This document shows positions 2,633 through 49,575 of a DNA stretch of 64,000 nucleotides, in pieces. The stretch lies in NCBI GenBank assembly GCA_035653615.1, contig DASRBN010000001.1, positions 1 to 64,000 of the forward strand. The letters are read 5' to 3'. The notes under the pieces were generated by a model. The model saw only the letters and a program-made list of their open reading frames with translations, searched no databases and was not told where the DNA came from. A program made the translations under genes and the position numbers. Numbering within the stretch: position 1 is the stretch's first letter; each line of letters starts with the position of its first letter. Source of the DNA: Ktedonobacteraceae bacterium (GTDB lineage: Bacteria; Chloroflexota; Ktedonobacteria; Ktedonobacterales; Ktedonobacteraceae).

Positions 2633-2742
2633 GTTGTTTAGTGCAAATGCCTTTGACATGTTCGGGTGTGGCCGCTATACTCTCCCCACAGAGCAGCGGC
2701 AGGAACTGGACCTTTTCCCGACTTCCCGGTGGGGATTGAAAC
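2633..2742 (+). CRISPR. Solitary CRISPR leader-repeat unit, copy A
   Basis: A 110-bp unit made of a leader with a consensus promoter followed by one 37-nt sequence (2706-2742) that has the form of a CRISPR repeat: it contains the complementary arms CCCGACTTCCCG / GGTGGGG and ends in GGGGATTGAAAC, the 3' end shared by many type I/III repeats. The same arrangement, with about 85 percent identity by eye and the repeat differing at two positions, recurs at 34355-34465 on the minus strand; similarity stops exactly at the end of the repeat in both. No second repeat follows within 100 bp and no cas genes are in the window. It is read as an orphan leader plus first repeat, or a mobile unit derived from one. 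Confidence 0.6.
2653..2681 (+). promoter_or_regulatory. Promoter in the CRISPR-like leader, copy A
   Basis: TTGACA (2653-2658) and TATACT (2676-2681) are separated by 17 nt, a near-perfect housekeeping-sigma promoter. It would transcribe through the single repeat and the unique sequence behind it towards tRNA-Pro. Both hexamers and the spacing are conserved in copy B. Confidence 0.65.
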
Positions 2743-2879: not shown

Positions 2880-2955
<76 letters not shown>

Positions 2956-33776: not shown

Positions 33777-34346
33777 ATGCCGACCGATGAAGAACTCGTT
33801 CGTGCGTGGCAGCGCGGAGATGTAGAGGCGCTGGAAACCCTTGTCCGGCGTTACCATGCCCCGCTGGTGGCTCACCTCTACCGTGTGCTGGGGGATACGC
33901 ACCTGGCAGAAGACCTGGCACAGGAAACATTCCTGCGCCTGGTGCGCGACGTGCAGACTTACCGGTATCCGCGCCCATTTCGTCCCTGGTTTTATGCCAT
34001 CGCGCATCACCTGGTCAGCAATCATTACGCCAGCGCCTATGCGCGTCGTGTTGAATTGCGCACCGAACTTCCTGAGGCAATTGCCCAGGACCCAGACCCG
34101 GCGGAATGGTTCGATCATTGGGAGAGGCACGACGATCTGAAGCAGGCCCTGGCGCATCTAAGCCAGGAGCAGCGCGAGGTGCTGAGTTTGCGGTTTGGTC
34201 AGGAGTTGAGCATTCAGGAAACAGCCGTCATTCTCTCTATTCCACCCGGCACCGTCAAAAGCCGCACTTTCACAGCCCTGCGCCTGCTGCGTGCATACCT
34301 TGAGGAGCAGGCAAAGCGGAGCGCGAACAGGCAAGGAGGAATATAA
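33777..34346 (+). CDS. ECF RNA polymerase sigma factor
   Basis: A 189-residue extracytoplasmic-function sigma factor. Region 2 (~5-75) has DEELVRAWQRGDVEALETLV, the core-binding AEDLAQETFLRLVRDV and PRPFRPWFYAIAHHLV; region 4 (~120-180) reads LSQEQREVLSLRFGQELSIQ and GTVKSRTFTALRLLRAYL. Start ATG 33777 with GGAGAGG close upstream. The next gene starts 1 bp after the stop and encodes a membrane protein with ABC genes behind it, so the sigma factor probably controls this transporter operon; the membrane protein may be its anti-sigma factor, although no zinc anti-sigma motif is visible. Confidence 0.93.
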   Translation: MPTDEELVRAWQRGDVEALETLVRRYHAPLVAHLYRVLGDTHLAEDLAQETFLRLVRDVQTYRYPRPFRPWFYAIAHHLVSNHYASAYARRVELRTELPEAIAQDPDPAEWFDHWERHDDLKQALAHLSQEQREVLSLRFGQELSIQETAVILSIPPGTVKSRTFTALRLLRAYLEEQAKRSANRQGGI

Positions 34347-34347
34347 C

Positions 34348-35286
34348 ATGGATAGTTTCAATCCCCAGCGGGAAGTCGGGAAAGGGTCCAGGTCCCGCCG
34401 CTTCTCCGTGAGGGAGGGTATAGCGGCCAAACTTGAAAATGTCAAGAGCAAATGCAATAAGCAGCCATTCAATCCCATGCCAGATTCATCCTGGCAGCAA
34501 GAGCATTTGCCCCCAGACCTGCAGGCTATCGCGCGCGCCTATGCCAATCAGCCGGTTCCGCGTCCATCACCCGGTTCGCACGCGAGCATGATGCAGCGTT
34601 TACTTGCAGAGGCGACATATACCAACCAGCATAAAGAGCCGGTGAGCTTCTGGCAGACGCTAGCCGTGGCACGTTGGCGCGCCTACCTGCTTGGCCCCTG
34701 GTTCTGGATTATTGGCATACCGGTGCTGCTGGTCGGCGGGCTGCTGGCCCCCAACGGGTTCGCGGGCAACCCGGGCGCGTGGTTGATCCTGCTGCTTCCA
34801 CTCACTACCGTGTTCAGCCTGGCGTATGCTTTACGCACATCTTCCGCTGGATTGCGCGCGGTTGAGGCAAGCTGCCCGGTCAACTTTGTACAAACAACCA
34901 TCGGCCTGGCGCTGGCGATTCTGGCTTTCGATATCCTGCTCGGCCTCGTCACGACCCTTTTCGCCACTCTGGTACATTTCGCACCTTTCTGGAATTTATT
35001 GCTCGCGTGGCTGGCTCCAGTACTATTGCTTACTGCCATCTCGCTTCCGCTCGCGCTCTTGCGTGGCTTAGGCCTGGCTATGCTGGTTGGAGGACTGCCC
35101 TGGCTGTTCCTGGGATTCAGCGCTCTGACGGCGCAAAATGCGAGCAACTGGGCAGCCTGGTTTTTTGCTCTGCCCCAGGATACTCTGGCGCTGCTGTCCC
35201 ACCTGGTTGTGATTGCGTTCAGCCTGGTGTTTCTGACCATGCTCTTGTTCAGCGCGCCACGATGGCAGCGCTTCTGCACTTTTTAA
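34348..35286 (+). CDS. Membrane protein of the ECF-ABC operon, with repeat-derived N-terminus
   Basis: A 312-residue protein from ATG 34348, which has a strong AAGGAGG; it begins right after the sigma-factor stop. Residues 3-39 (from FNPQREVGKGSRSRRF on) are encoded by the antisense of a CRISPR-like leader-repeat unit, so the original protein probably began near MPDSSWQQEHLPPDLQAI at ATG 34477, still in frame. The body has a cytoplasmic helical part (~50-105), then about six membrane segments (GPWFWIIGIPVLLVGGLLAP at ~124, further at ~147, ~190, ~220, ~250 and ~290). The neighbouring permease and ATPase suggest a signalling or accessory role in the transporter; anti-sigma activity is an inference. 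Confidence 0.75.
   Translation: MDSFNPQREVGKGSRSRRFSVREGIAAKLENVKSKCNKQPFNPMPDSSWQQEHLPPDLQAIARAYANQPVPRPSPGSHASMMQRLLAEATYTNQHKEPVSFWQTLAVARWRAYLLGPWFWIIGIPVLLVGGLLAPNGFAGNPGAWLILLLPLTTVFSLAYALRTSSAGLRAVEASCPVNFVQTTIGLALAILAFDILLGLVTTLFATLVHFAPFWNLLLAWLAPVLLLTAISLPLALLRGLGLAMLVGGLPWLFLGFSALTAQNASNWAAWFFALPQDTLALLSHLVVIAFSLVFLTMLLFSAPRWQRFCTF
34355..34465 (-). CRISPR. Solitary CRISPR leader-repeat unit, copy B
   Basis: The minus-strand copy of the unit at 2633-2742. The repeat occupies 34355-34391 and reads on the minus strand CCCGACTTCCCGCTGGGG followed by ATTGAAAC; the leader follows to 34465. Leader and repeat align over 110 bp with copy A with one single-base gap. Similarity ends exactly at the repeat end. 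On the minus strand the sequence after the repeat is the ribosome-binding site of the membrane-protein gene and the end of the sigma gene. Most of the unit is translated in antisense as codons 3-39 of that gene without a stop. Confidence 0.65.
34417..34445 (-). promoter_or_regulatory. Promoter in the CRISPR-like leader, copy B
   Basis: On the minus strand TTGACA (34445-34440) and TATACC (34422-34417), 17 nt apart. It would produce an antisense RNA over the start of the membrane-protein gene and into the sigma gene. Confidence 0.55.
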
Positions 35287-49035: not shown

Positions 49036-49575
49036 ATGATCTGGAAGAAGAATAGCGAACGCATCAATAAGGCTGTCACGAGATTGCTGCAGGCGGGCCA
49101 TATTTCTGAGCCACCGGTTCCTGTTGAGCAATTGGCCGAACTGTGCGGCGTTCAGATTCGCTACGTGCCATACGAGGGGCAACTGGCAAGCCTGCTCTTA
49201 TGGGAAGATGGTCATACGGTGATCGGTGTAAACCGCCTGCACTCCCTTACGCGCCAGCGCTTTGCCATCGCGCACGAGTTGGGGCACCTCGAACTGCACC
49301 ATCATACCGGCAGCCATATCGACCGCCACTTTTCGCTGCCCTTACACCCCCTGCCCGCGCTCTCGCCGGTTGAGTCGTTAGAATGCGAGGCCAGCACGTT
49401 TGCCGCGGAGCTGCTGGTGCCAACTCCTTTTCTCGAACATGATCTGAAGGGATTGAAAATGCCTGTCGATTACGATGATAATGCCGCGACCCTGGCGCTT
49501 GCCGGGCGCTACCAGGTCAGTTCGCAGCTCATGAGCTTCCGGCTGGTGAGCATGTACTTCTGTTCAGAACGATAA
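49036..49575 (+). CDS. ImmA/IrrE-family metallopeptidase
   Basis: A 179-residue protein with the zinc motif FAIAHELGHLELHHHTG (HExxH, ~77-93) and a third ligand in LECEASTFAAELLVP. An N-terminal PVPVEQLAELCGVQIRYVPY region is typical. These cytosolic peptidases often cleave a regulator (ImmR-type) to relieve repression in mobile elements or stress responses. No helix-turn-helix regulator is adjacent. It follows the EccC gene by 21 bp, so both may be cotranscribed. Confidence 0.9.
   Translation: MIWKKNSERINKAVTRLLQAGHISEPPVPVEQLAELCGVQIRYVPYEGQLASLLLWEDGHTVIGVNRLHSLTRQRFAIAHELGHLELHHHTGSHIDRHFSLPLHPLPALSPVESLECEASTFAAELLVPTPFLEHDLKGLKMPVDYDDNAATLALAGRYQVSSQLMSFRLVSMYFCSER

What the first reader, a model, noticed from the sequence alone, without database searches (positions are those of the whole stretch)
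2633..2742. Two dispersed copies of a leader plus single CRISPR-like repeat, without array or cas genes
2633-2742 (plus) and 34355-34465 (minus) align over about 110 bp. Both hold a consensus promoter with 17-nt spacing, a ~24-bp stretch, and one 37-nt repeat ending in GGGGATTGAAAC. Similarity stops exactly at the repeat end, where the first spacer would begin. Different unique sequence follows each. This is what a mobile or duplicated leader-repeat would leave, or what an RNA gene using a CRISPR repeat as handle would look like. Promoters and repeat are conserved, suggesting that transcription matters.
Basis: partly seen in the sequence, partly recalled or inferred. Interest (0 to 1): 0.85.

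Follow-up and report, generated by a model that had tools for sequence, protein, structure and literature searches.

The report
Mobile repeat with CRISPR-repeat-like end
The two copies belong to a family of about fifty short, scattered, apparently mobile DNA elements in this soil bacterium's genome; each carries a promoter-like sequence and ends in about 18 bases that match the end of the host's own CRISPR repeat, so each could in principle make a guide-like RNA from whatever DNA it landed beside, although that has not been shown.

Summary
The unit is a ~99-bp element (window 2642-2741 plus strand; 34356-34456 minus strand) with at least 41 BLAST copies in this 6.6-Mb Ktedonobacteraceae genome and relatives in other genera of the family, 20 of them in one other genome. 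Its flanks carry matching 4-bp xTAx (mostly YTAR) direct repeats more often than shuffling predicts, and 96%-identical copies sit in unrelated flanks, so it is best read as a non-autonomous mobile element. It inserts often exactly at stop codons (TAA/TAG). No transposase partner and no terminal inverted repeats were found.

It is not a copy of the CRISPR leader plus repeat. The genome does have long arrays and a complete type I-D system with Cas6, but the leaders are unrelated and only the last ~18 nt are shared (17/18). That short resemblance appears specific: the type-1 end matches this genome's repeats, the type-2 end in another genus matches an array repeat of that genome (17/20), and the cross-comparisons between the two do not match. 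Most likely a mobile element whose right end mimics the host's Cas6 hairpin and crRNA handle. RNA function is inferred, not shown. Selection on promoter hexamers is not detectable; on the handle it is weak.

The parts
2642..2741 (+). element copy 1 (type 1), from TGCAAATGCC to ATTGAAA
   Evidence: profile hit 2637-2744, E 5e-29
2638..2641 (+). left flanking tetranucleotide TTAG (right flank here is CACA, so no intact duplication in this copy)
2653..2681 (+). promoter-like TTGACA-17-TATACT
   Evidence: 11 of 12 positions
2725..2742 (+). CRISPR-repeat-like end CCCGGTGGGGATTGAAAC (17/18 with the genome's array repeats; the last C is outside the conserved unit)
34356..34456 (-). element copy 2 (type 1)
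   Evidence: profile hit, E 5e-28
34457..34460 (-). left flanking tetranucleotide TTAT
34352..34355 (-). right flanking tetranucleotide CTAT (3 of 4 identical to the left flank)
34417..34445 (-). promoter-like TTGACA-17-TATACC
   Evidence: read directly
34355..34372 (-). CRISPR-repeat-like end CCCGCTGGGGATTGAAAC
33777..34346 (+). ORF of 189 aa that reads like an ECF-type sigma factor (judged by eye, no family search); it ends about 9 bp from the right end of copy 2, which therefore points antisense into its 3' end

Best explanation
A family of ~99-bp, non-autonomous, apparently mobile elements specific to Ktedonobacteraceae. Shown: dispersal to at least 41 sites; sharp boundaries TGCATTTGC...TTGAAA; excess of matching 4-bp flanking repeats of the form xTAx (mostly YTAR); frequent insertion exactly at TAA/TAG stop codons, which such a duplication would leave intact; a right end that matches the 3' part of the host's own CRISPR repeat. 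Inferred: an unidentified transposase acting in trans moves it; the promoter-like sequence transcribes toward the right end; Cas6 could recognise the CCCG-loop-GGG hairpin plus ATTGAAA(C), releasing an RNA with a crRNA-type 5' handle followed by flanking sequence, often antisense to the 3' end of the neighbouring gene. Whether such RNA regulates genes, acts as a decoy for Cas proteins, or does nothing is not known.
For: 41 copies at E<=1e-3; 55 full-length copies catalogued over the genomes; a 96%-identical pair (C15:248.6 kb and C27:49.6 kb) with unrelated flanks up to the same boundaries. Flank test: identical 4-bp flanks in 8 of 55 copies versus 2.7 by shuffling, p=0.003; among 16 copies with xTAx on both sides the 4th base agrees in 12 versus 5.6, p=0.0008. 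Stop codons of opposite-strand ORFs of >=120 codons fall exactly at the right end in 8 copies and within 15 bp in 17. CRISPR match: type 1 versus G000 repeats 17/18, shuffle p<=0.001; type 2 versus the G027 array repeat 17/20, p=0.002; type 2 versus G000 repeats p about 0.8, type 1 versus the two G027 repeats p=0.16 and 0.07. The highest copy numbers are in those two genomes. Cas6 with a complete type I-D system in G000; Cas6 beside the matching array in G027. ATTGAAA is the most often intact 7-mer, 25 of 31 BLAST-detected copies against a median of 9.
Against: No terminal inverted repeats in the copies here (2 of 55 at p<0.05, as expected by chance), no transposase with such ends found, and the one IS701 copy has unrelated ends. 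The flank test is significant but not overwhelming, uses hand-curated boundaries, and nine copies carry CTGG only on the left. The host-matching argument rests on two genomes; type 1 also matches one G023 repeat (p<=0.001), and type 2 also occurs in genomes where no Cas1 was found (G035, G045). Copy-specific hairpin covariation is not significant within either type. Promoter hexamers are not preferentially conserved. The strong handle constraint (p=1e-7) is inflated by how copies were detected; in the less biased set it is p=0.02 and GGCAGGA is at least as constrained.
Confidence: 0.6

Rival explanations
1. A plain dispersed repeat or MITE-like element whose right end resembles a CRISPR repeat by coincidence; promoter-like and structured features are inherited and unused.
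For: Similar substitution rates over -35, -10, spacer and body; no significant copy-specific covariation of the terminal hairpin within either type; some copies have the promoter region disrupted or the tag broken. In G032/G034 an element with the same left box has CTAG on both sides and near-matching inverted ends TGCATCTACCCTTGA / TCAAGGAAGATGCAA (p=0.0008 for L192), as an ordinary MITE would.
Against: The end matches the host repeat in two genera with two different handle sequences, and the cross-comparisons do not; ATTGAAA is the most often intact 7-mer.
Confidence: 0.3
2. A dispersed set of crRNA-like regulatory RNA genes, in the manner of CreA: each copy makes one Cas6-processed guide that steers the type I-D complex to a nearby target.
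For: Promoter-like hexamers at 17 nt upstream of a host-matched handle; Cas6d present; excess of copies pointing antisense into gene 3' ends (17 versus 6 within 15 bp, counted; my binomial estimate p about 0.03); precedents of ectopic repeats with function (PMC9458426).
Against: No individual copy shown to be conserved as a guide; no second repeat; hexamers not constrained; targets not searched genome-wide.
Confidence: 0.12
3. Solitary CRISPR repeats acting as RNA anti-CRISPR decoys (Racr/SRU type) that happen to be on a mobile chromosomal element.
For: Promoter-like sequence plus solitary repeat-like end matched to the host's repeat; published prophage SRUs match the host subtype in 83% of cases and are often just downstream of a predicted promoter (PMC10651486).
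Against: Only about 18 of 37 nt match; copies are chromosomal, no hit in phage or plasmid collections nor, for the left box, in viral contigs; about 50 decoys beside long arrays would be odd if strong.
Confidence: 0.08
4. Remnants of a true CRISPR leader plus first repeat, spread by duplication.
For: Promoter-like sequence followed by a repeat-like end.
Against: Array leaders are unrelated and only 18 of 37 repeat bases match; relatives carry the same left half with a different end.
Confidence: 0.03

Closest known systems
Bacterial MITEs / non-autonomous insertion elements
   Same: short, dispersed, sharp ends, flanking direct repeats
   Different: no terminal inverted repeats in the copies of this genome, partner transposase unknown, host-matched CRISPR-like end
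IS701 family (4-bp target duplication; PMC2266710)
   Same: 4-bp flanking duplication; the YTAR consensus is from memory
   Different: the one IS701 copy in the genome has inverted ends AGTACTACAGTGNCACTT, unrelated
Solitary repeat units / Racr RNAs (PMC10651486)
   Same: promoter-like sequence plus one repeat-like unit resembling the host's repeat
   Different: multicopy on the chromosome, partial repeat only, not phage- or plasmid-borne in what was searched
CreA of CreTA modules and other ectopic repeats (PMC9458426)
   Same: degenerate repeat outside arrays with flanking guide-like sequence
   Different: no toxin partner looked for or seen, no second repeat seen, dozens of copies, most far from cas loci
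TnpB omegaRNA at the right end of IS200/IS605 elements
   Same: RNA-like scaffold ending at the element's edge so that the flank would be the guide
   Different: the end of the TnpB element checked is different and carries its own hairpin; flanking direct repeats, which IS200/IS605 insertion does not make (general knowledge)

Membership tests
CRISPR leader plus repeat | full 37-nt repeat | tested here: not met
   only the 3' 18 nt match, 17/18
CRISPR leader plus repeat | leader homologous to array leaders | tested here: not met
   no visible similarity between the element and the leaders of the C4, C9 and C44 arrays; no formal alignment score was computed
MITE / mobile element | many dispersed copies in unrelated flanks | tested here: met
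MITE / mobile element | target-site duplication | tested here: met
   4-bp excess, p=0.003 overall and 0.0008 for the 4th base, hand-curated boundaries; p=0.008 for identical flanks with automatic boundaries
MITE / mobile element | terminal inverted repeats | tested here: not met
   2 of 55 copies at p<0.05; present only in the G032/G034 relative
IS701-derived element | ends match an IS701 in the genome | tested here: not met
SRU / Racr | solitary repeat-like unit with promoter matching the host repeat | tested here: inconclusive
   partial repeat match only
SRU / Racr | inhibits CRISPR interference | not testable with these tools
   needs an interference assay
CreA-like guide RNA | guide with a target near its own locus | not tested
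   flanks were not searched genome-wide for targets
TnpB omegaRNA / IS605 | shared end with a tnpB element | tested here: inconclusive
   11 tnpB hits; nine loci scanned for one right-end motif, two gave ends, neither like the element; the other ends were not mapped

The most novel reading that the evidence does not exclude
A mobile element that carries a promoter and ends in the host's own crRNA handle, so that each insertion turns the flanking DNA into a class 1 CRISPR guide: a CRISPR counterpart of transposon-end guide RNAs, with its end tracking the repeat of each host.
Probability: 0.18. Interest if true: 0.92.

Novelty: new variant of a known kind. Interest (0 to 1): 0.6.

Why it matters
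If the host-matched end is functional, a simple mobile repeat has become a source of new CRISPR guides or of CRISPR decoys, linking transposition directly to guide RNA origin. Even if not, it shows a multicopy mobile element whose terminus has come to resemble the host's CRISPR repeat, and such copies could be miscounted as solitary CRISPR repeats in automated screens.

Tried and rejected
IS200/IS605 or TnpB omegaRNA origin: a tnpB gene lies just upstream of one copy (C30:327.2 kb), but its own right end is different and the neighbourhood is probably coincidence. IS701 origin: the single copy has unrelated ends. IS630-type insertion at TA: considered, set aside because the fourth flanking base also agrees. 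Whole-element RNA fold: strong energies, but a family-wide consensus structure is weak and copy-specific covariation is mostly not significant; hints are the start-site region with the 3' part in type 1, p=0.01, the left arm with the rest in type 1, p=0.04, and the terminal hairpin over both types together with one of four window choices, p=0.04. Rfam: nothing above threshold for the element. Array spacers against the elements: only 11-12-nt matches. Third window hit at 49403-49459: lies in an ORF, taken as a chance match. Autonomous element with the same ends: none found in the regions read.

Full report
What is there. The whole genome (6.59 Mb, 44 contigs) holds 41 copies at E<=1e-3 with the consensus and further divergent ones. 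Close relatives of the sequence were found only in the same family: the same left half appears in G023, G027 and G045 with a different end, CCCGCTTGAGGGTACTGAAA(C/T)TAG, and a search with the type-2 consensus finds matches in 10 of 29 family genomes from 8 of 13 genera, 20 of them in G027. Some of those matches cover only one end. Public records for the left box are a Ktedonobacteraceae and a Chloroflexi MAG. One exact scan of viral contigs for the left box and distant BLAST of phages and plasmids found nothing.

Boundaries and mobility. A catalogue of 55 full-length copies runs from TGCATTTGC to TTGAAA. Copies on C15 and C27 are 96% identical with unrelated flanks up to these points. The flanking tetranucleotides agree more often than shuffled ones (8 identical of 55 versus 2.7, p=0.003; 4th base 12 of 16 versus 5.6, p=0.0008). 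I curated the boundaries by hand for that test; the automatic version gave p=0.008 for identical flanks and no excess in total matching bases. The form is mostly YTAR, whose reverse complement is also YTAR, so TAA/TAG stop codons are natural sites that survive insertion. In agreement, stop codons of opposite-strand ORFs of at least 120 codons fall exactly at the right end in 8 copies and of same-strand ORFs at the left end in 4 (ORFs were called by length only). No inverted ends are detectable in these copies, but an orthologous relative in G032/G034 has CTAG on both sides and near-matching inverted ends. I found no transposase that fits.

Relation to CRISPR. The genome has arrays of 72, 64 and at least 39 repeats on C9, C4 and C44 plus smaller ones, a complete type I-D operon with Cas6d and a Cas1-RT locus beside the C44 array. 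The array leaders do not resemble the element. The repeats share only CCCG-T-GGGGATTGAAAC. Type-1 ends match them at 17/18, p<=0.001 by shuffling; type-2 ends do not (p about 0.8). Type-2 ends match an array repeat in G027 at 17/20, p=0.002; type-1 ends do not match the G027 repeats significantly (p=0.16 and 0.07). Type 1 also matches one G023 repeat, p<=0.001, while G023 carries a single type-2 copy, so the tracking is not perfect. I regard the link as probable, resting on two genomes.

Is it functional? Mixed. Over 25 closest pairs the tag ATTGAAA differs at 4% against 13-20% elsewhere, but the catalogue required a near-intact tag; in the 31 BLAST-detected copies the tag differs at 10% against 19%, p=0.02, and GGCAGGA at 6%. 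The -35 and -10 hexamers are not significantly more conserved than the rest. Terminal-hairpin covariation between arms is not significant within either type. So selection on an RNA product is possible but unproven.

Verdict. A real, multicopy, apparently mobile element with a host-matched CRISPR-like end; not a CRISPR leader and repeat. The RNA mechanism is inference.

Noticed in passing
L136/L184 and L150 (G027): Two copies carry a tandem duplication of the last ~14-17 nt (CTTGAGGGTACTGAAAT twice) without any spacer between.
   Followed up: no
L028, L114, L120, L177, L180 (G000): Several copies have the -10 region replaced by another G+C-rich sequence (GGGCGACC...CCCCTAC type), apparently a second dispersed repeat, at about the same internal place.
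   Followed up: no
L064 3381-6842 (G000 contig C44): A reverse transcriptase ORF lies next to cas1 beside a 39-repeat array whose repeat is of the same family as the other arrays.
   Followed up: partly
L191/L192 (G032/G034): An orthologous locus keeps the left box identical over about 47 bases with a different downstream sequence and inverted ends; it lies next to a conserved ORF and may be a functional promoter.
   Followed up: partly
L193/L194, L195, L199 (G037, G039, G019, G035): The 23-29-nt right end CGACCCGCTTGAGGRTACTGAAA is joined to different 5' sequences in several genera, so the right end behaves as a module.
   Followed up: partly
window 2880-2953: A tRNA gene lies about 140 bp downstream of copy 1 on the same strand, with its own promoter-like sequence (2833-2862) between.
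   Followed up: no
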